Source of the DNA: Apostichopus japonicus
Taxonomy: Eukaryota > Echinodermata > Holothuroidea > Aspidochirotida > Stichopodidae
DNA length: 64,000 nucleotides
Assembly: GCF_037975245.1 (NCBI RefSeq)
Contig: NC_092570.1
Location: 13,847,001-13,911,000 of the forward strand
Reading direction: 5' to 3'
In this document: in pieces, positions 1 through 49,600 of the stretch
Numbering within the stretch: position 1 is the first letter of the stretch
Layout: each line of letters opens with the position of its first letter
Translations under genes and position numbers: made by a program
The notes under the pieces: model-generated
Seen by the model: only the letters and a program-made list of their open reading frames with translations
Databases searched by the model: none
Told to the model about the DNA's origin: nothing

Positions 1-397
1 CAAATCCAACCAACTTAAATAACAGTTGACTACAAAGAAATGTTTATGACCAGGCTGAGTAAAGGGATTCAAAATGTGTTTGCAATAACACGCCACAGGG
101 TTTCTTCAACAACTGTGATTGACGTAAATATTAGATTTACCCCTCGGCTCAGATTTCACATAGGTTTTGGAGATTAAACTGAAAATATATAAATTTACAT
201 TGGCCTGTTTCATTTGCAAAGAAGGAAATTAAACATTAATCCAAACCAAAGACATCACTTGACAGTTCTAGGATGGTATCTTGTCGGGGAGTCACTGAAA
301 GAACTCGACCTCTTCAATAAAGAGGGCGGTATGTCACATTAGAAATAACATTAATACTGTTGATGCAATCTGATGTTTAAGAAATAAGTTCAGCTTT
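1..397. other. Non-coding, nothing recognised
   Basis: AT-rich sequence with no open frame, RNA gene or repeat that I could recognise. Confidence 0.5.
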
Positions 398-14289: not shown

Positions 14290-14478
14290 TTGGAAAATTC
14301 AGAAAAGTAAAATAAAACTTCCAGCCCCCACCGGGATTCGAACCCGGGCCTCCCGCTTTATATGCGGACACCCTAACCACTATAGGCTATGGACGCTGAT
14401 TGTATGTCCAGAGGTTCGAAACCGGTAAGGAAGGTCGTAATTCCACTGTAGGCGTTTGTCATCTGTATATCGAAATGT
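14290..14478 (-). mobile_element. tRNA-derived SINE, family S1, copy A
   Basis: On the minus strand it reads, in order, a first box-B-like GGTTTCGAACCTC, then a tRNA-like unit with box A TAGTGGTTAGGG and box B GGTTCGAATCCC, then GGGGGCTGGAAG and a short tail. An anticodon-like stem CCGC/GCGG with a 7-nt loop is visible, but the acceptor arms do not pair, so it is not a functional tRNA. Related copies lie at 42566-42716 and 54165-54340. Confidence 0.82.
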
Positions 14479-16331
14479 ATATACATATATACTCACTACA
14501 CAAATGTGTAACTGTCATGCCTATATGACAAAATGTCATCTCTTGAAACTAGAAGGTGTTTTCATCGCTTCAACCCAGATTCAACCTAGGTTTATCTGGA
14601 TCCTGTTTATTACGCCACTTGCATATTGATAAATCATGCATTATGGTTTGGCAGTGAGAGACACTTCAGTTAGAGAAATTTACATTCGTAAACCCACGCT
14701 CTAGTAAATAGCAGCAATAATCTTTCGACAGAAATTGAGTTTTTAATGAAGAAAATAAATAGTAACCCATGCGTTATCTCCAAGCAGCAACATAACGTGA
14801 CTTGTTCACTTTTTTACTTTGTAGTGACAAAATGTTTGCAGTTAAAGCGTGCTATATATTGAAACTTTTGTTTAGTATATTGTAATATGATATGTTTCCT
14901 CAGTTTTAATACAATTAGGCTACGAATGTTTCATCCTTACTTTTCTTTTAAGTTAAGGGAAAATGAGACAATCGAACCTAGAATACTTCAAGGACACGGT
15001 AACTCGATACGATGTTGATCAATATACAGCCATGTATGTATCTATAATTACATTTGTAGATGTTACACAAATATGATTGATATCTCAAGAAGAAAAAAGA
15101 ATGTTACTCTTGTTTACTTTGTCACGTTTCAACGTTATTTTCGTCTCACCAGTCAACATGTAAATTATAGAAGAGTATAAATGCTTGTCTATTTTTTTCG
15201 TATAAACATATTTGCGTTCTCTATGGAAAAAAAATATGAGAATATCTGAATATTCATTCTAATGTTGTCATTGTCTTTAAGACAAATGGTTATGAATCAT
15301 TGGCTGTTTTAATACTTTTCTCAATCCTCTTATTATATTATGCACGGGAATTCTTTTTAACGGGCTCTTTATGAACGTGCTCTATACAAAACTCTGAATT
15401 GTTCACGATTATATAGCCCACTTTGCTCAGGGAATTCGTCCGCGGTGTTAGTGACGTTGTCAATGACGTCATCTTCATGATTGGTTGGGCAGGAAACTGA
15501 GATAAAGATATTTTACCTGCTGCATGGATTTCATCATGCATGAGATCAAATTAACATATTTTGTATTTACATCCTCTGTGTGCAGCATTAGACACGCAAC
15601 TAATTGTAAAGATTTACACTCGATTTATAATTTAAAGGGTTTCGAATTTATAGATTAATCAAAGTTTTCTGTTTCCTTTTCAAAATGCTCTTCCGGGAGA
15701 GGTTATGGCTATCTGACTCGATCACTGACAATTTATACTTAATTTATTGTGTGACAAATGCTATGGGAAGGGGAAGAAGGAAAGATGGGAGGGGAAGGGG
15801 TTTAGGAATGGTAGTTAAATGCCTATTAAAGTTTCGAAGAGGTGTAACCAATCTTGAACTTTCTATCACATTTGAACGGTGGAGGGGTGGGGGGGGGGGT
15901 AAGCGTGATGGGAGGAGTAGTGACTTTATACGAGAGTGGAAGCTGTATAAGACAAGTAATTTAACATTTTATTGATGACAGCGGTTTCTTAAAAGAAAAC
16001 TTGTTTCTCGTTCGTCGCTAACTTCGAAGTACATTTGCAAAATGTAACTATATTTTGTTGGAGTTTTGCTTTTTTTTTATATAGGCCTGCTCTCCATTTG
16101 ATGTTCATTATGAACAATCTTAGCAGGTCATGACCTTTTCTGAGGTGGAATAAAACATTAAATAACGTAAAGAGATTGTCATCAACCGACGAGAATACTA
16201 TGATGCAAATCATCTCGCTTCATAAAATTTCGGAGAAGCAAACCTACTTATTTAACTTCTTCGATTAATATAGGATTAATAGGAAACACATATAAAATAA
16301 AGCAACAAAAGCGTCTGCATATTAATATACA
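14479..16331. other. Non-coding, nothing recognised
   Basis: Intergenic. The short frames here (for example 15685-15975) are purine-rich low complexity with no family resemblance. Confidence 0.4.
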
Positions 16332-16390
16332 TTTCACGACAGGTTTCGTCCTTTTGGGACTCATCAGGCGAAGGTTGGAATCGAACCCGA
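16332..16390 (-). ncRNA. Hammerhead ribozyme motif (type I), copy 1, with tRNA-like box B upstream
   Basis: Read on the minus strand. Core CUGAUGA occupies 16367-16361. Stem II is GUCC/GGAC with loop CAAAA (16360-16348), then GAAA (16347-16344). A minimal stem III ACCUGU (A·U and C·G pairs) follows, and the cleavable C is at 16338. Stem I pairs CUUCGC (16373-16368) with GUGAAA (16337-16332), five of six pairs. All invariant hammerhead core bases are present. Directly upstream is GGTTCGATTCC, a tRNA box B, at about 16377-16388. No box A is left, so the 5' part is truncated. It lies at the edge of the satellite of about 330 bp. Confidence 0.8.
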
Positions 16391-18105
16391 CTTACCTAAT
16401 GATCAAATTTGGATGAAAAATCGAGGATTTCTGTTTGCGTCAAAATATTTACTATGGAACCGACTTTCATGTCCATCCGGTTTAAAGTAAAATACTACTC
16501 ATGTTGTCTCTTCTAAATTCCATTTTTTAAATGATGACATAATAATTAAAATCCTTACAAAATGATGAAATTTGGACGAAAAATCGAGGTTTTCAGATTT
16601 CAGCATAAATGTGTATAATGGATTCGTATGGATCAGAAACTCATTTCCCTCCGGTCGAAAGTAAAATTCTCTTCATTTTCGCCTCTTAATTCAATATTTT
16701 AAATGATGACATCATGATTTAAAGTTGAAATTCAACTGTCGTTTGAAAGAGTAGGGACCTAATTTAAACGCTAATACTGTTCAATATATAATAAAGAGGT
16801 CGTCATCCCATCTCTGCATTGCTTGGAAAAGATTTGAATAATGGCTATTTTGGTCGAAATTTGACAAAAGTCATAAGGGTATGGTCTTACAAAATGATGA
16901 AATTTGGACGAAAAATCGAGGTTTTCAGATTTCAGCATAAATGTGTATAAGTAATTCGTATGGATCAGAAGCTCATTTCCCACAGGTCAAAAGCGAAAAT
17001 ACTCTTCATTTATTGCCTCTTAATTCAATATTTTAAAAATGGCTATTTTGGTCGAAATTTGATAAAAATCATAAGGGTATATAGCCTTACAAAATGATCA
17101 AATTTGGACGAAAAACCGAGGTTTTCAGATTTCAGCATAAATGTGTATAATGGATTCGTTTGGATCAGAAGCTCATTTCCCTCAGGTCAAAAGTGAAATT
17201 CTCCTCATTTCTCGCCTCTTAATTCAATATTTTAAATTATGACATAATGATTTAAAGTTGAAATTCAACTGTCGTTTGAAAGAGTAGGGACTTATTTTAA
17301 ACGCTATAATCGTTCAATATATAATAAAGAGGTCGTCATCCCATCTCTGCATCGTTTTGATAAGATTTAAAAAAGTCTATTTTGGTTGAAATTTGATAAA
17401 AATCATAAGGGCCTTAAAATAATGATCAAATTTGGACGACAAATCGAGGTTTTCAAATTTCAGCATTAATGTGTATAATGGATTTGTATGGATCAGCTCT
17501 TTTCCTACAGGTCAAAAGTGAAATTCACTTCATTTTCCGCCTTTTAATTCAATATTTTAAAATTTGAAATTATGATATAAAGTTAAAATTCAACTGTTGT
17601 TTGAACGAGTAGAGACCTATTTTAAACGCTAATATTTTTCAATATATAATAAAGAAGTTGTCATCCCATCTCTGCATTGTTTTGAGAAGATCATAAAAAT
17701 GGCTATTTTGGTCGAAATTTGATAAAAATCATAAGGGTATATATAACCTTACAAAATGATCAAATTTGGACGAAAAATCTAGGTTTTTCAGATTTCAGCA
17801 TAAATGTGTATAATGGATATGTTTGGATCAGAAGCTCATTTCCCACAGGTCAAAAGCGAAATTCTCTTCATTTTTTGCCTCTTAATTCAATATTTTAAAT
17901 TATGACATAATTATTTAAAGTTGAAATTCAACTGTCGTTTGGAAGAGTAGGGACTTATTTTAAACGCTAAAATCGTTCAATATACAATAAAGAGGTCGTC
18001 ATCTCATCTCTGCATCGTTTTGAGAAGATTTTGAAAATGGCTATTTTGGTCGAAATTTGATAAAAATCATAAGGGAATATATATAAGATTTAAAATGGAA
18101 ATTCA
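16391..18105. repeat. Satellite array, monomer about 330 bp with deletion variants
   Basis: The landmark AAATTTGGACGAAAAATCGA recurs, with small changes, at about 16400, 16563, 16895, 17097, 17425 and 17758. Full monomers are about 330 bp, and two intervals are shortened to about 160 and 200 bp. Other shared blocks are AGAGGTCGTCATCCCATCTC and AATGGCTATTTTGGTCGAAA. There is no coding frame through the array. Confidence 0.9.
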
Positions 18106-19251: not shown

Positions 19252-20544
19252 CTAGTCTTTAACCGTTCTGAACATCTCCAAAAGTTTAGCTTTATATCGC
19301 CTATGTCGGAATGCGTAAATGAATGGATTAACGCAAGTGTTTAATATAGCTAAGACTACAGACATTTGATAAAACCATCCACTGAAATTGAGTTTTCCTC
19401 CGAGACTTAATTGAAAGAACGCCCATTGATTTGGCGACCAACATATGAGATATACTAAATAAACTGTGAACAAGGATCGAGTAGCATTGCGTCTTTTAAC
19501 GTTTCGTCCAGGGCCGCTTTGACGGTTCGCTGGACGATGCAATTGCGACTGACGGAATCCCGTGTCAACCACAGCAACACGTCTGGTATCGGCTACCATA
19601 GATGGTACTTCGTCAGGTTCCAACGGAAGAGAATTGAGTGGATGGACGGTCGGTTGTGCAGAGCTGGATACAGTACCTTGGTCTACCCTACTGATGGCAT
19701 TGACAGAGGTCAACGCTGCACCGAGAGATGAAGCAGTACCAGACACCTTTAGCTCTAACATCCTCAGCTTCTTAATGGTCTTCGTAAACGCAAATGTCAT
19801 GACCACAACCGGAAGAAGGTACTCCCAGACAAACAACGGTCCACCTACCCAAACCGGTGACTTGGTTAAGATACAAACGCCATCGATGTAAGTGCGGGTG
19901 GTAAAGGCAATGAAATATTGGCAGATTGGCGCGAGTAACCAAACCAGAAAGACGAGGCTGATCAGATTTCTTCGGGCAAATAATTTGGCATATTTGAGTG
20001 GCCACATCGTGGCTACATAACGTTCCAGAGAGATGAGGGTGAGATTAAACGTAGACACTGCGAAAAGAGCAAACAGAGTGATTCTTGTCCAAAAGTAACA
20101 GGCAAAAGCCTGTAAAACTTGGCTGTCAGTCTTTGGACTTCCAATGATCGCGTAACCAACGTAAAGAACCAACATTAAGGAAGACAATAAATCCACGAGG
20201 GCTTGGTGAATTATTAGAAGGTTCGTCTGATTTCTACTTCTTGAACGACTGCTAATGAAAACAGCAATAACGAGTGAATTACCAATAATTCCGACCAAAC
20301 CGATCACAAACTGAAACAAAACCAGAAATGAAATGCTCGGATTCTTCAATGTTTCCACCATGAAGTCCGGCTCTGTGGTACTCTCGTTGGTTGTGGCAAG
20401 ATAATCAACCGATGTACCTTGCATGAAGTGGACCTGTCGGGAACCGTTGGTCAAGCCCTGCAAGGCTAACGCGTCCATTGACCATGTCGTTGCGTCTCCT
20501 TCAGCGCTAACCAGTTGAGTTGTTGTATTCATAACTGAATTCAT
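19252..20544 (-). CDS. Rhodopsin-family (class A) G protein-coupled receptor 1, intronless
   Basis: 430 aa, seven hydrophobic segments, single exon, with ATG at 20544. The N-terminus is about 70 aa with NxS/T sites at N6, N33 and N53. Class A hallmarks: TM1 GNS (N89), TM2 LVDLL (D118), TM3 Cys149 paired with Cys224 in extracellular loop 2, ERY (174-176), TM6 CWSP (368-371) and TM7 NPFIY (406-410). The third intracellular loop is long (about 100 aa), rich in Ser, Pro and Arg. It should be a plasma-membrane receptor signalling through G proteins. The closest visible relative is the receptor at 34556-35785, sharing RRNAT, ICWSPNQWAFFQL and ILNTCVNPFIYA. The ligand cannot be read from the sequence; peptide- or amine-like receptors are both possible. 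Confidence 0.92.
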   Translation of the reverse strand: MNSVMNTTTQLVSAEGDATTWSMDALALQGLTNGSRQVHFMQGTSVDYLATTNESTTEPDFMVETLKNPSISFLVLFQFVIGLVGIIGNSLVIAVFISSRSRSRNQTNLLIIHQALVDLLSSLMLVLYVGYAIIGSPKTDSQVLQAFACYFWTRITLFALFAVSTFNLTLISLERYVATMWPLKYAKLFARRNLISLVFLVWLLAPICQYFIAFTTRTYIDGVCILTKSPVWVGGPLFVWEYLLPVVVMTFAFTKTIKKLRMLELKVSGTASSLGAALTSVNAISRVDQGTVSSSAQPTVHPLNSLPLEPDEVPSMVADTRRVAVVDTGFRQSQLHRPANRQSGPGRNVKRRNATRSLFTVYLVYLICWSPNQWAFFQLSLGGKLNFSGWFYQMSVVLAILNTCVNPFIYAFRHRRYKAKLLEMFRTVKD

Positions 20545-22631
20545 ACAGTGCCAGATAGATGATAATTTAAACTGTCTTTGACTTCTCCAAAGCTAAAACA
20601 CGAAATAAAACCCAAAAGAGCAAAGACTATTTTGTTAATTTTCTTTTCGGTTCACAGACGGTTTCCCGTTATTGAATTATTGATGATATAAATCTTTCTG
20701 GCTAAATTTTAATTCGAGGTTTTTACTTCCAAGCTGATTGCACATCTTGAATATTTTCCTCTCTTCGTATTTTGCGTAAGATACACAATACTGGATTAAC
20801 AAGCAGGGGGGGGGGGGGGGGGGAATCCTTTGAAAATATAATAACAGAAGCTAAAATAGACAAAATGTTTGAAGATCCTCAAAAACGAACATTAAAAGAC
20901 AAAAATATATGAAAGTTAAGATAGCTATATTCTTTCTATAGATTCATGAAAGATTGTTTCCACTAAGATTCGATGTATTAAAAAAACTATATACAACTTG
21001 AAGAGATTGATGCTACGGTATACCTCGCGATACGTACTTTTGTCAAGATTGAAACCCCTGGAGCTGTGTGTCAGAGTTATATACTTATATATGTATTGTA
21101 CGAATCAAGAAGGAATGAATCTTAATATATGCATGCAGACGGTAATAGAAGTGACGCTATATAGCGAGACAATTAAGACTTGGTTAAAGTCCTTTCTAAA
21201 AATAAATTTCAAGATGATCAGATATGTCATATATGGTGTGAAATGACTTGCAGAAAGTGCAAAGTCCCCTTCTTATATCAAATTATAAAATTAAAATTTC
21301 TTGCAAATTGGCCCAGTTATATTCCAGACAGGGATTCTAAACCTTACCTTTTTTTACCAATTAAAATAAATACGACGGTAGAAACCAGTGAAAAGATGAA
21401 AACGGCACGAAGAAATATTAATAATGCAACATAGACTTAACGATACAGTATTAAATTGATATGCTACCATTAATAGTTCTTCTCTTTTTTTTCTCTGATT
21501 GCTTTTTCATTTTTCCCTTTTTTTTAACTCTTTTTTTTTACATAGTGACGTTACGAATAGCAGAATATATTGCAGACTTTCTAAGAATATATGTTTTGCT
21601 AAATATATTTTTGCTAAAAATATATTTAAATTTTTTTGCTGAACATTTTGGTCATGAAATTTCTTAAAATTCCCATTGCATAAAACTTCTGTTCATCTCT
21701 TTCTGTTTTACATACTGTATATGCCTCACAGAAACACTGAACGTGTTAAGAAGTATCATAATCATAAGCAGTAGCTTTCAATGTGGCTTTACTACAACGG
21801 AGAGAAAATTTAAAAAACACAAACACGACATGTTCGGCAGACGATCCACAACAATGTCTCTAGTCCCCTCCCGTTACCACTCCCCATCCTCATCATTATC
21901 CGTGCCACCTATTTCCTTTAATTTCTTGATTTTGAAGTTGGGTCTTATGTCGACGTTGCACCCATGCATGATCTACTGGTTTTTCATATTTCAACTTCCA
22001 AAGCGCCTGGAAGTAGCACCCATGAATTTATGGTACTTATACTAGTCGCACCCTTATATGAGAAATGAGGTAGCACATATGATATATTGGTATTTATATT
22101 TAACTTTTTAAGTTGCCCACATGTGGCTTACTCAAGGAGGATAGGGAGGGCGGCATGCCCCCCCCCCTCCCTACAAACACACACAACTTAAGTGTAGATC
22201 TTAGTTATATACCTAAATTATAGTCTAACTAAACCTACGACTACACTATGTCACCAACGACCCCAGGACCTCACCTCTTCTTTGGTCTTGTTTTAAATTC
22301 TGGATCCGCTCCTGACGTTAGACATACTAATTCCTCTCTTTGAACTATTAAATTATTAATATTTGCGCTCCAAAACATAAGCTTGCAACCGTCGAATAAA
22401 TCTAATTTAAAGTGCTTTACGAGAGATTTACCAATGACGTCATCGATTCTTATACCCTCGCAAACACATGCTGTGTTTTTAATATACTCTATGATATGAT
22501 AGGATAATAAATCCTTTTACCAATGGACTTTTGTAACAATGGGAATGACGTTAGAGAAGGTTTTCTTTTCTGGCTGGATTTATTTCCTTTGTTTCATGTG
22601 ACAGGAAGTAGGTCTCAATGGTAAATGGTAG

Positions 22632-23365: not shown

Positions 23366-23516
<151 letters not shown>

Positions 23517-23569
23517 ATGAATGTGTAATACACCCTTAATGACAGTTATTCAAAGCCAATTTATACGCT

Positions 23570-23713
23570 ATAACACACCAGTAGAATCACTGTGGTCGAG
23601 TGGTACGGGCTTAGGTTCGTGACACGAAGATCCGAGATTCGATTCCTACCTTCGCCTGATGAGTCCCAATAGGACGAAACCGGTCGTGAAGTGGAATTTT
23701 TCTGGTGTGTTAT
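23570..23713 (+). mobile_element. tRNA-like / hammerhead composite element bounded by 12-bp inverted repeats
   Basis: The ends ATAACACACCAG (23570-23581) and CTGGTGTGTTAT (23702-23713) are perfect inverted repeats. Inside, 23592-23649 looks like a tRNA gene body, with box A TGGTCGAGTGGTACGGG, an anticodon-like hairpin around TTCGTGACACGAA, and box B GAGATTCGATTCC. A hammerhead ribozyme (23650-23691) follows with no spacer. Flanking DNA is TA microsatellite on both sides. The layout suggests a pol III-transcribed, self-cleaving short retroelement similar in principle to schistosome Sm-alpha SINEs or metazoan retrozymes. That classification is inference. Confidence 0.8.
23650..23691 (+). ncRNA. 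Hammerhead ribozyme motif (type I), copy 2
   Basis: Stem I pairs CUUCGC (23650-23655) with GUGAAG (23686-23691), six pairs including one G·U. The core CUGAUGA is at 23656-23662. Stem II is GUCC/GGAC (23663-23666, 23672-23675) with loop CAAUA, and GAAA is at 23676-23679. Stem III is minimal: A·U and C·G around a CG loop within the palindrome ACCGGU (23679-23684). The predicted cleavage follows C23685 in GUC. Every conserved core base is intact. Such short palindromic stem III forms cleave best as dimers in known families. Confidence 0.87.
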
Positions 23714-23725
23714 TCTTTATTGAAT

Positions 23726-23726
<1 letters not shown>

Positions 23727-23778
<52 letters not shown>
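23727..23778. repeat. TA microsatellite
   Basis: Uninterrupted TA repeat just right of the tRNA-like/hammerhead element. Confidence 0.95.
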
Positions 23779-23779
<1 letters not shown>

Positions 23780-24361
23780 CATTGCACAGATATGTTGCCA
23801 AAATACCCGTCCTTCAGATCCCAGTACCCTGGAATTGCACTCGATTAAACTGTAGATACCCTTATCAGATAATTTAGAAAGGCCCCCCAACCCCCCCCCC
23901 CCCCCCCCCATCCCACCCAATAAATGCTTGAATTATGTGTGGTTATGCCTTTATGTCTTGATCCATGATGTAAACAATATTATTTACGTCGAAAACGTGA
24001 AAGTAGAAATAGATGGCGCTATTTTATTACGTTGTCCGTATATTTAGATGTATGGCTCTGACGTTTTCCAAAGATTCTATGAAATATTTTTATAACTCTG
24101 GTAACAGTGTAAACTTCCGTGCACACAGTTAAAAGAGAAGAACGCCCCCACTTTAGCTTTGGATATAGACAAGGCTTTACGCACGACACATAGACGCTGC
24201 TAGCCGGCAATTTAGCGGCTGGTATTCGTTCGTTGCAACATTCGTTTTTACCGTCACTGTCGTAACATTCTTCTCCACTGAGACACTGAGATTGTTCGAC
24301 ACCCGTCTTTTATTGCTATTAATAACTTGAAATGTCAGAATATGCGTCTCATAACTCTTTG
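23779..24361. other. Non-coding, with poly(C) tract
   Basis: A C-rich run lies at 23883-23909. No gene recognised. Confidence 0.4.
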
Positions 24362-31153: not shown

Positions 31154-31465
31154 GAGAGCGTGGTGGCCAATTGGCTAAGGCGTCGGACTCGTGATCCAAG
31201 GATTGCTGGTTCGAATCCTGCCTAGTTCATTACGTTGTGTCCTTGGGCAAGATGCTTTATATCACTTGCCTGTCTCCACCCAGGGTTTAAATGGGTACCT
31301 GTGAGGTAACTTGTCATTGGGCGCAGTATAAAACTGCTGCCGACTGGAGGGATTGTCTCTGGGACAGGTTATCATTGACCAGGGGTAATATAACGTCTGT
31401 AAAGCGCTTTGAGACCTATCGCTGGCATAAAGCGCTATAAAAAGTAAATATTATATTAAATATCA
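31154..31465 (+). mobile_element. Full-length tRNA-derived SINE with conserved core
   Basis: A tRNA-like head holds box A TGGCCAATTGGCTAAGG and box B GGTTCGAATCC (31154-31226). The body contains CCTTGGGCAAGATGCTTTAT and CTCCACCCAGGGTTTAAATG, a core found in SINEs of many marine invertebrates. The 3' part is AAAGCGCTTTGAGACC and AAAGCGCTATAAAA, a LINE-like tail. It ends in an AT-rich tail. The acceptor stem does not pair, so it is not a tRNA gene. Confidence 0.9.
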
Positions 31466-34555: not shown

Positions 34556-35785
34556 TCAATGAACCCCTATTTTTCTCTTGCAGTGTCTTACCAACTCTTT
34601 TACTCTGTCTTTGTATGTTTTGTGTCTCAGGGCATAGATGAACGGATTCACGCATGTATTCAAGATGACAAGAGTCACAGATATCTTGTAAAAATAACCG
34701 CGAAAATCTAACGGTCCGCCTAGATTGAGCTGAAAGAATGCCCACTGATTTGGCGACCAGCATATGATGTAAACGAAGTACACCGTAAGAAGTGTCGTCG
34801 TCGCATTCCTCCGGCGAACGTTTACTCGAAAGTTTGATGTCGATGGTGATGAGAATGATGCTGCCGGGGATGGAGTTGGCGTTGCTGACGGTGGGGTGTT
34901 CTCCTGCTGGGAATGAAAGCAATCCTGACGATTTCTCGCTGACATAGGTAGTTTGAGAAACATAGATGTTGTTACAGTTCCCTGCGTAAATGACGTCTCG
35001 ACTCCCTGTTCGCAGGAGGCGGTAGCTTCCGTTACTACCGATCTTGATTCCACCGCCGCTGTTGTCATGGTGGCGGCCGAACGGAGGCTCGATGCGTTGG
35101 ATAGAACTTTATTCATGCGTCGAAGTTTCCGTGCAACACTTGCAAATGAGAATGACATGATTATTACCGGCAGAAAGTACTCCCATAAGAATAGCAAAAT
35201 ACCGACCCACGCAGGAGTCCAACGTATGTCGCAACCAGTCTCATCCGAGAATCGAATTGTAGTTATTATGAGTATATACTGCATTAAGGGCGAAACTAAC
35301 CAAATGACCAAAATCGTAAATCGTAGATTTCTCCGAGTAAAAATATTCGCGTACGAATGTGGGAAAATCGTCGCAAAATATCTTTCCAGCGATATAATGG
35401 TCAGATTGAATGTCGAAATTGCAAAAGATGCGAATAAGAGGTTTTGATTCTTCCAAAGAAAACATGACCATATTCGAAGGAGATATATATCTGTCTCGGG
35501 ATGTCCAGAAAGTTCGTAAACAACATGGAGGACGAGAAGGAGAGACGTAAACAAATCGATGAATGCTTGATTTGTGATTAATAAATTAGTCTGGTTTCTT
35601 TGGGTGCGACGGTGGAGAAATACGAAGCACACTAGAAAGTTTCCCACGATACCCAATAATCCTACCAAGAGCTGAGTTAGTAACAGGGCTGAAATGGCTG
35701 TGTCTACCGGAAAGCTCTCCCTGTCATCCGACGTAACTGAATCGGAACGGATTGTGGTATTCATCATTTCTTTCTTAATTAACAA
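34556..35785 (-). CDS. Rhodopsin-family (class A) G protein-coupled receptor 2, intronless
   Basis: 409 aa, single exon, ATG at 35785; a second Met pair at residues 7-8 could be the true start. Class A hallmarks: TM1 GNF (N49), TM2 FIDLF (D77), the Cys108-Cys185 pair, ERY (134-136), TM6 CWSP (342-345) and TM7 NPFIY (380-384). The third intracellular loop is about 110 aa, rich in Ser, Thr and Pro, followed by RRRNATT. The extracellular N-terminus is only about 28 aa, much shorter than in GPCR 1. Long identical stretches with GPCR 1 (FNLT.ISLERY.AT, ICWSPNQWAFFQL, ILNTCVNPFIYA) show local duplication. A short basic tail ends CKRKIGVH. Ligand unknown; plasma-membrane signalling is inferred from the family. 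Confidence 0.92.
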   Translation of the reverse strand: MLIKKEMMNTTIRSDSVTSDDRESFPVDTAISALLLTQLLVGLLGIVGNFLVCFVFLHRRTQRNQTNLLITNQAFIDLFTSLLLVLHVVYELSGHPETDIYLLRIWSCFLWKNQNLLFASFAISTFNLTIISLERYFATIFPHSYANIFTRRNLRFTILVIWLVSPLMQYILIITTIRFSDETGCDIRWTPAWVGILLFLWEYFLPVIIMSFSFASVARKLRRMNKVLSNASSLRSAATMTTAAVESRSVVTEATASCEQGVETSFTQGTVTTSMFLKLPMSARNRQDCFHSQQENTPPSATPTPSPAASFSSPSTSNFRVNVRRRNATTTLLTVYFVYIICWSPNQWAFFQLNLGGPLDFRGYFYKISVTLVILNTCVNPFIYALRHKTYKDRVKELVRHCKRKIGVH

Positions 35786-36532
35786 TATATAGTTTTCTCA
35801 ACTTTATACGAAATATTTCATGAATTTGCTCTTAATTTTACTAAAACTCATTTTTTCTAATTTTCCTTTCAGAGCTAAAATGATGGTTTCACATTTTCCC
35901 CCTAAATCGCGAATCATTATAATAACAAAACTTGAAATAAAGTTAGAAAATAGAAGAAGAAGAATAAGAAGAAGAAGAAATGTTGATAGCTTTTAAAAAT
36001 CGATCATTCGCAAGTTGACAAGTTATCAAACAAAAAACATCCTCAGCAATATATGGAATGTCGAAATCGTTACTAGCTTCAAATCCCGGATGATTTCTTT
36101 TCTGCTATGTTCTATATCTCCTCGTAAAGTCGTCTGAAACCGTTGTAAAGTTCCTAAATATGTTGATGCAGGTAAATGAAGAAAATGTCGTCTTTCTTTT
36201 CTTACTAGGGGTTTGTTAACAAAATTCTCCAGGTTTTTTAAACTTGCTTATAAAATGCGAAACTTATTAAGTAAGCAACCGTACACAGTTATCCGCATTT
36301 ATATTCCGAAAATAGCAATTAATTTCAGAATAAATTTCCGTAGAAAATTTCCGCGGGGCGTTGAACAAAAAAGCATCTGCTTGTAAGAGAGAGAGGTGGA
36401 GAGAGAGATTTAGAAACCTACACTCGACGGTAAAAAAAACCAAAAGACTGAATTTATTAACTGCACGCTTTTTCTGTCCATGAACATCTTTAATGCATGT
36501 TGTAGGCCTTAATGCTATCTATTTTTAACGTT

Positions 36533-42159: not shown

Positions 42160-49600
<7,441 letters not shown>

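What the first reader, a model, noticed from the sequence alone, without database searches (positions are those of the whole stretch)
23570..23713. Compact element coupling a tRNA-like pol III promoter to an intact hammerhead ribozyme, bounded by 12-bp inverted repeats
Box A, an anticodon-like hairpin and box B run straight into a type I hammerhead with every core base conserved and a palindromic minimal stem III (ACCGGU). The whole unit sits between perfect inverted repeats. Seen directly: motifs, pairing and inverted repeats. Established: schistosome Sm-alpha SINEs join pol III promoters to hammerheads, and metazoan retrozymes carry type I hammerheads with short stem III. Inference: this is a self-cleaving, possibly circle-forming SINE family not obviously described for this lineage. 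The 12-bp inverted ends are not part of either known design.
Basis: partly seen in the sequence, partly recalled or inferred. Interest (0 to 1): 0.87.

Follow-up and report, generated by a model that had tools for sequence, protein, structure and literature searches.

The report
Ribozyme retroelement with Penelope-type insertion marks
The spot holds one copy of a small repeated genetic parasite that carries a self-cutting RNA motif and a tRNA-type start signal, and its copies bear insertion marks like those of Penelope retrotransposons, which points to an enzyme that may spread such elements in animals.

Summary
A type I hammerhead (RF00163, 40.6 bits) lies at 23650-23691 behind A- and B-box promoter motifs. 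The family is multicopy: 285 exact core matches, reversed control 0. The framing is partly wrong. The inverted repeats do not bound the element; they form an internal stem. The repeat unit is about 341 bp and occurs as partial, double and 2.5-unit tandems, so this is a metazoan-type retrozyme.

The new part is how copies insert. Of 153 segments, 113 end at one of two sites about 36 nt apart, and 103 of the 112 checkable ones run into (TA)n. 5' ends are scattered. Adjacent inverted segments are head-to-head 39 times, tail-to-tail 0. Published Penelope-like elements (PLEs) show the same marks: two internal reverse-transcription starts, extension of both strands, AT-rich targets, partial tandems. 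An abundant PLE here also inserts in (TA)n, and one lies in the window. PLEs had been proposed as partners on shared type I hammerheads, tandem copies and co-occurrence; these junctions test that more directly. Pol III transcription, cleavage and circular RNA remain inferred, and a conserved T5 upstream of the start sites is unexplained.

The parts
23400..23516 (.). (TA)n microsatellite on the left, presumed target
   Evidence: Tandem Repeats Finder, period 2
23517..23528 (-). tentative short inverted remnant of the second 3' end region (about 10 matching nt; overlaps the start of the sense copy)
   Evidence: read by eye from the sequence; too short for a test of its own
23522..23735 (+). retrozyme copy in sense, 5'-truncated; monomer positions -191 to +22
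   Evidence: 96% to the 341-nt monomer of L026
23570..23581 (+). 5' arm of the internal closing stem (12 bp here, 11 bp or less in most copies)
23593..23603 (+). pol III A-box-like motif TGGTCGAGTGG
   Evidence: mean majority base frequency 0.971 over copies
23616..23628 (+). anticodon-like hairpin TTCGT-GAC-ACGAA
   Evidence: pairs counted on 79 copies, 91-93% of cells paired, 7 cells changed on both sides (6 C-G to U-A, 1 U-A to C-G)
23636..23646 (+). pol III B-box-like motif; its last five bases are also the outer 5' strand of hammerhead stem I
23650..23691 (+). type I hammerhead ribozyme, stem III ACCGGU; predicted cut between 23685 and 23686
   Evidence: RF00163 40.6 bits
23693..23697 (+). 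outer 3' strand of stem I, GGAAT, pairs with 23642-23646
   Evidence: fold; 94.9% of cells paired
23697..23701 (+). T5 run, possible pol III terminator
   Evidence: T5 or longer in 91 of 97 units matched by a flank pattern
23702..23713 (+). 3' arm of the internal closing stem
23714..23735 (+). first preferred 3' end (reverse-transcription start) region, monomer +1 to +22
   Evidence: 68 of 153 segments end at +15..26
23729..23778 (.). (TA)n microsatellite on the right, presumed target; overlaps the element's own CTATATAT
45291..47176 (+). Penelope-like element copy (RT and GIY-YIG), (TA)n at both ends: candidate helper family
   Evidence: Pfam RVT_1 and GIY-YIG; 97% to the 3143-bp unit
16330..16388 (-). 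59-nt fragment of the same family's hammerhead region, not in (TA)n
   Evidence: 95% to monomer -78..-20; below Rfam's gathering score (not listed)

Best explanation
23522-23735 is one copy of a non-coding, about 341-bp-unit metazoan-type retrozyme family. Its RNA carries a type I hammerhead (inferred active), with A- and B-box pol III motifs upstream and a stem that closes over both. Copies are made by a Penelope-like reverse transcriptase and GIY-YIG endonuclease acting in trans: the enzyme opens a (TA)n microsatellite, starts cDNA inside the retrozyme RNA at one of two sites about 36 nt apart (monomer about +15..26 and +42..60), and copies upstream for a variable distance, at times more than once round the unit; when both target strands are extended the two cDNAs join head-to-head. 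Shown here: the family, unit, tandems, two 3' sites, (TA)n targets, scattered 5' ends, head-to-head joins, and a PLE with many open frames in the same targets. Inferred: the PLE acts on this RNA (about 0.7); the template is circular rather than an uncut multimer (about 0.5); pol III makes the RNA (about 0.45); the hammerhead cuts (about 0.85).
For: Family: 285 exact core places, reversed control 0; 50 of 59 RF00163 matches over cut-off. Unit and tandems: 341-, 338- and 349-bp spacing; L118 is an 863-nt run with three identical cores; 21 of 153 segments exceed one unit. 3' ends: 68 at +15..26 and 45 at +42..60 of 153, with (TA)>=8 in the next 40 nt in 63 of 68 and 40 of 44, against 61 of 2000 random 40-nt pieces of the window. 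39 head-to-head, 0 tail-to-tail, 5 direct neighbours within 60 nt in 101 loci. 5' ends scattered; 101 of 117 segments that end at +15..60 cross the cleavage site, as does 23 of 32 in the set chosen without regard to the 5' side. PLE: 84 matches, open frames up to 983 aa; 7 of 7 fetched 3' ends (L120-L126), the window copy and L119 run into (TA)n. Published PLE traits: two adjacent internal starts with a 30-40 bp tail, cutting and extension of both strands, AT-rich targets, tandems (PMC11167929, parts 1-2 of 4 read); inverted pLTRs and head-to-head junctions (PMC3846280, passages). Constraint: hammerhead 0.977, A box 0.971, B box 0.966 majority frequency against 0.936-0.939 in the spacer and 0.921 between the boxes.
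Against: No sequence similarity between the retrozyme's and this PLE's 3' ends (338 and 440 of 1000 shuffles score as high), so how the enzyme would know this RNA is unexplained. None of the PLE copies seen shows the second 3' end, and one PLE fragment (L129) ends outside (TA)n. In the published lizard PLE the start site is not homologous to the cut DNA; here site 1 ends in CTATATAT, so pairing with (TA)n may place it and its exact position is blurred. Only 22 of 39 head-to-head pairs have both outer ends in +5..60, and 40 of 153 segments end elsewhere (10 of 37 checkable ones in (TA)n). The conserved T5 lies upstream of both start sites, so a pol III transcript that stops there could not be the template. 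Another SINE, without hammerhead, also sits in (TA)n, so (TA)n alone is not proof of PLE. No cut-site pile-up: 4 of 117 segments start within -31..-23. Covariation is weak: slid by one column the structure shows as many two-sided changes (17 cells against 16).
Confidence: 0.68

Rival explanations
1. A retrozyme or SINE moved by a LINE by ordinary target-primed reverse transcription into (TA)n; inverted joins are twin priming.
For: Twin priming by LINEs is established (recalled). LINE-like 15-bp target duplications are reported for Nematostella repeats (PMC4918200, passages). A hammerhead-free SINE also sits in (TA)n.
Against: Two fixed internal 3' ends, tandems longer than the unit and 39:0 head-to-head pairs are the published PLE picture. 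No (TA)n LINE was looked for, so this is not excluded.
Confidence: 0.2
2. A tRNA-derived SINE of the Sm-alpha sort in which the pol III transcript, cut by the hammerhead, is the moving form; tandems come later by recombination or repeated hits.
For: A and B boxes unique in the window; T5 or longer in 91 of 97 units; Sm-alpha is called a non-autonomous retrotransposon with type I hammerheads (PMC6155905, figure legend passage).
Against: 3' ends lie 20-60 nt past the T5; 5' ends show no clear pile-up at a start site near the A box (13 of 117 in -148..-125); units within L118 and L026 are identical. L044/L059 units differ (89%), which fits repeated hits there.
Confidence: 0.15
3. A small DNA transposon (MITE) with 12-bp terminal inverted repeats that picked up a hammerhead.
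For: Perfect 12-bp inverted repeat in this copy.
Against: Sequence on both sides of the repeats is shared by other copies; units are tandem; ends are variable; outermost pair fails in 66 of 79.
Confidence: 0.02

Closest known systems
Metazoan non-LTR retrozymes (Cervera and de la Pena 2020, PMC7229834)
   Same: Type I hammerhead in short (here 341 bp), GC-poor (0.416), non-coding tandem repeats from partial to multimer.
   Different: Here A/B boxes lie upstream, whereas a review says plant and metazoan retrozymes seem to harbour no promoters (PMC7761336, section 9). Here two 3' ends, (TA)n targets and head-to-head joins point to a helper. That 2020 paper already called PLEs a strong candidate, from type I hammerheads, tandem copies and co-existence.
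Schistosome Sm-alpha / Sj-alpha elements
   Same: tRNA or pol III-type head with a type I hammerhead, unit of similar size (size recalled). A full tRNA is reported in schistosome repeats (PMC4918200, passages).
   Different: No tRNA-model match here. PLE-type insertion marks are not described for Sm-alpha in the passages I saw; the 1998 primary paper is not held.
Penelope-like elements (PAc of Anolis, PMC11167929; Adineta, PMC3846280)
   Same: Two internal 3' starts 30-40 nt apart, both strands extended, AT-rich targets, partial tandems, inverted head-to-head copies, hammerhead upstream of the start sites.
   Different: This element codes for nothing; its hammerhead is above the Rfam cut-off, while Rfam finds none in the PLE of this genome even at E<=10. 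PAc start sites are not homologous to the cut DNA.

Membership tests
Metazoan non-LTR retrozyme | Type I hammerhead | tested here: met
   RF00163 40.6 bits; 65 of 79 aligned copies keep an intact core pattern
Metazoan non-LTR retrozyme | Short tandem units (about 150-450 bp), dimers to multimers | tested here: met
   341-bp unit; 21 of 153 segments longer than one unit; L118 2.5 units. Most segments are single or partial
Metazoan non-LTR retrozyme | Non-coding and low GC | tested here: met
   GC 0.416; longest stop-free run 85 codons in a three-lap monomer
Metazoan non-LTR retrozyme | Expressed as linear and circular RNA | not testable with these tools
   no RNA data at hand
tRNA-type SINE | Internal A and B boxes at tRNA spacing | tested here: met
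   motif level only
tRNA-type SINE | tRNA-derived head | tested here: inconclusive
   no RF00005 match at E<=10 in 23500-23780; only the boxes resemble tRNA
tRNA-type SINE | 3' part shared with the helper element | tested here: inconclusive
   not significant against the one PLE family compared: 338 and 440 of 1000 shuffles as high
PLE-type insertion | Two alternative 3' ends 30-40 nt apart | tested here: met
   +15..26 (68) and +42..60 (45) of 153
PLE-type insertion | Head-to-head inverted partner copies | tested here: met
   39 head-to-head, 0 tail-to-tail, 5 direct; 22 of 39 with both outer ends at the 3' sites
PLE-type insertion | AT-rich target | tested here: met
   103 of 112 checkable ends followed by (TA)>=8; background 61 of 2000
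PLE-type insertion | PLE enzyme acts on this RNA | not testable with these tools
   needs purified protein or a cell assay
Penelope-like element itself | RT and GIY-YIG reading frame | tested here: not met
   no ORF of 120 codons at 23522-23735; 85 codons at most in the unit
DNA transposon / MITE | Inverted repeats at the element's ends | tested here: not met
   repeat unit continues past both arms

The most novel reading that the evidence does not exclude
Animal retrozymes are moved by Penelope enzymes, and this family shows it in its junctions: cDNA starts inside a circular hammerhead-made RNA where it meets a (TA)n target, at two fixed sites, on both strands, and runs round the circle. It would be a retrozyme-SINE with its own pol III-type promoter that depends on a PLE rather than a LINE.
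Probability: 0.4. Interest if true: 0.8.

Novelty: new variant of a known kind. Interest (0 to 1): 0.62.

Why it matters
Which enzyme spreads hammerhead retrozymes in animals is open: one review says their repeats show no motif from which to deduce the autonomous partner (PMC7761336, section 9), and the 2020 paper names PLEs as a strong candidate on shared type I hammerheads, tandem copies and co-existence (PMC7229834). Here the insertion junctions themselves carry the marks of PLE reverse transcription, in a genome with an abundant PLE with long open frames, so the question can be tested with one protein, one RNA and one DNA. It also bears on whether retrozymes have promoters, and on whether a SINE-like element can live off a PLE.

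Tried and rejected
Rejected: inverted repeats as element ends. A shared 3' recognition sequence of retrozyme and PLE (TTTTTC..GTTATTC..(TA)n looked alike by eye): no better than shuffles. A pile-up of 5' ends at the hammerhead cut site: in the 32-segment set 5 of 32 start within -31..-24, in the larger set 4 of 117 within -31..-23; suggestive at most. A pile-up at a pol III start: 13 of 117 in -148..-125, not clear. Strong covariation: not found. Hammerhead in the PLE: none by Rfam at E<=10; a CTGAAGA..GAAA stretch seen by eye was not tested. Viral contigs: 0 exact matches of a 31-mer. Not done: spacer-only genome search (unanswered, not repeated); a search for (TA)n LINEs; relatives in other animals (none held).

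Literature: ten searches showed no report, among the rows listed, of PLE insertion marks in a retrozyme or of an echinoderm retrozyme; most subscription papers are not held, and three papers asked for were not held.

Caveats on counts: the 101 loci were chosen by four searches (144-mer, RF00163, two patterns), so copies with a hammerhead are over-represented; I left out 28 of 129 loci, 17 as repeats of one place or segmental duplicates and 11 PLE loci (L119-L129). At least two redundant pairs remain (L044/L059 are one place; L099/L100 look like a duplicate). Segments under 80% identity were dropped from the conservation count (148 of 153 used). Copy numbers are lower bounds (40, 74 and 83 candidates scored).

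Full report
What is there. Stem I is in two parts, CUUCGC/GUGAAG and, beyond a small internal loop, AUUCC/GGAAU; stem III is the two-pair ACCGGU; the predicted cut follows 23685. Upstream are an A-box-like (23593-23603) and a B-box-like motif (23636-23646), the only such pair in the window. The B box shares its last five bases with stem I. A T5 run (23697-23701) follows the ribozyme, and the inverted arms close a stem over boxes and ribozyme. The tRNA model itself does not match.

The true unit. The window lies in a 671.6-Mb genome. The 144-mer query gave 44 matches with only 40 of 1093 candidates scored; an exact 25-position hammerhead pattern occurs 285 times, its reversal 0 times. In other copies the similarity runs past both inverted arms. 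Tandem copies with spacing of 338 to 349 bp fix a monomer of about 341 bp. In its coordinates (+1 is the first base after the 3' arm; the cut lies between -28 and -27) the window copy is -191 to +22, at 23522-23735.

How copies end. I mapped 153 segments in 101 loci. 3' ends: 68 at +15..26, 45 at +42..60, 40 elsewhere. Of those with enough flank, 63 of 68 and 40 of 44 are followed within 40 nt by a TA run of 8 or more; elsewhere 10 of 37; random pieces of the window 61 of 2000. Site 1 is blurred because the element itself has CTATATAT there. 5' ends are scattered from -804 to beyond the start. Of 117 segments ending at +15..60, 101 begin upstream of the cut site, 4 at -31..-23 and 12 after it. 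In a set chosen only by a 22-mer at the 3' side (32 of the first 33 listed places; 187 places in all), 23 of 32 begin upstream of it. So the template was usually not a linear RNA ended by the ribozyme at that site: it was uncut or rejoined.

Neighbours and tandems. Within 60 nt, neighbouring segments are head-to-head 39 times, tail-to-tail 0 times and direct 5 times; in 22 of the 39 both outer ends lie at +5..60. 21 of 153 segments exceed one unit. L118 has an 863-nt run with three identical cores; cores within L026 are identical, within L003 98%, L069 97.5%, L101 92.5% and L044/L059 89%, against a median of 94% between copies. The first four fit a single circular or multimeric template; the last two do not, or are old. 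A shorter unit of about 205 bp, lacking roughly +45 to +178, occurs as dimers on contig C9.

The helper. In a lizard PLE purified protein starts cDNA at two adjacent internal sites, which explains the optional 30-40 bp tail of genomic copies, and cuts and extends both strands at AT-rich DNA; PLEs lie in tandem or partial tandem (PMC11167929, parts 1-2 of 4; passages). Rotifer PLEs often have inverted terminal copies, mostly head-to-head (PMC3846280, passages). The retrozyme shows all of these. In the same genome a PLE with RT and GIY-YIG domains gives 84 matches with open frames up to 983 aa. Its 3' ends run into (TA)n in 7 of 7 fetched copies (L120-L126), in the window copy (45291-47176) and in L119, a 3143-bp tandem; 5' ends of the window copy, L119, L127 and L129 also follow (TA)n; one L129 fragment ends elsewhere. 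The PLE 3' end is not similar in sequence to the retrozyme's, and a second 3' end was not seen among the PLE copies. So the case rests on shared mechanism marks and targets, not on shared sequence.

Function of the parts. Across copies the hammerhead (0.977), A box (0.971), B box (0.966) and T run (0.968) vary least; the spacer (0.936-0.939) and the stretch between the boxes (0.921) vary more. 65 of 79 aligned copies keep the core pattern. Structure counts fit the drawn stems (92.7% of cells paired against 33-52% when slid), but two-sided changes are few and slid versions reach similar numbers. The T5 run (T5 or longer in 91 of 97 units) sits upstream of both start sites: a pol III transcript that stops there would carry boxes and ribozyme but not the start sites. 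Either termination leaks, or a longer transcript from elsewhere is the template and the pol III product does something else. I leave that open.

Known and new. Short tandem units with type I hammerheads made as circles are known as metazoan retrozymes (PMC7229834, parts 1-4 of 6 read); schistosome repeats join a tRNA and a hammerhead (PMC4918200, passages). Partners were a guess: PLEs were named a strong candidate for type I hammerheads, tandem copies and co-existence, while a review of the same year saw no promoter and no motif that would reveal the partner (PMC7761336, section 9). The new part here is the junction evidence for PLE machinery, together with A/B boxes in such an element.

Noticed in passing
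window 42620-42731 (+) and 14322-14397 (-): A tRNA-Tyr-like SINE without hammerhead; most copies found in the fetched loci run into (TA)n at the 3' end, often beside retrozymes: perhaps a second PLE-dependent SINE.
   Followed up: partly
window 43131-43526 (-): Fragment of a second Penelope-like family; GIY-YIG match just below Pfam's cut-off (20.2 of 22.6 bits).
   Followed up: no
L079-L081 (contig C9): Dimers of a shortened retrozyme unit, about 205 bp, lacking roughly monomer 45-178.
   Followed up: partly
window 31156-31229 (+): tRNA-Thr-like head followed by a conserved-looking SINE body.
   Followed up: no
window 19255-20592 (-) and 34559-35797 (-): Two intronless rhodopsin-type receptor frames (7tm_1).
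   Followed up: no
window 16832-18081: Tandem repeat arrays of 200 and 338 bp next to the hammerhead fragment at 16330-16388.
   Followed up: no
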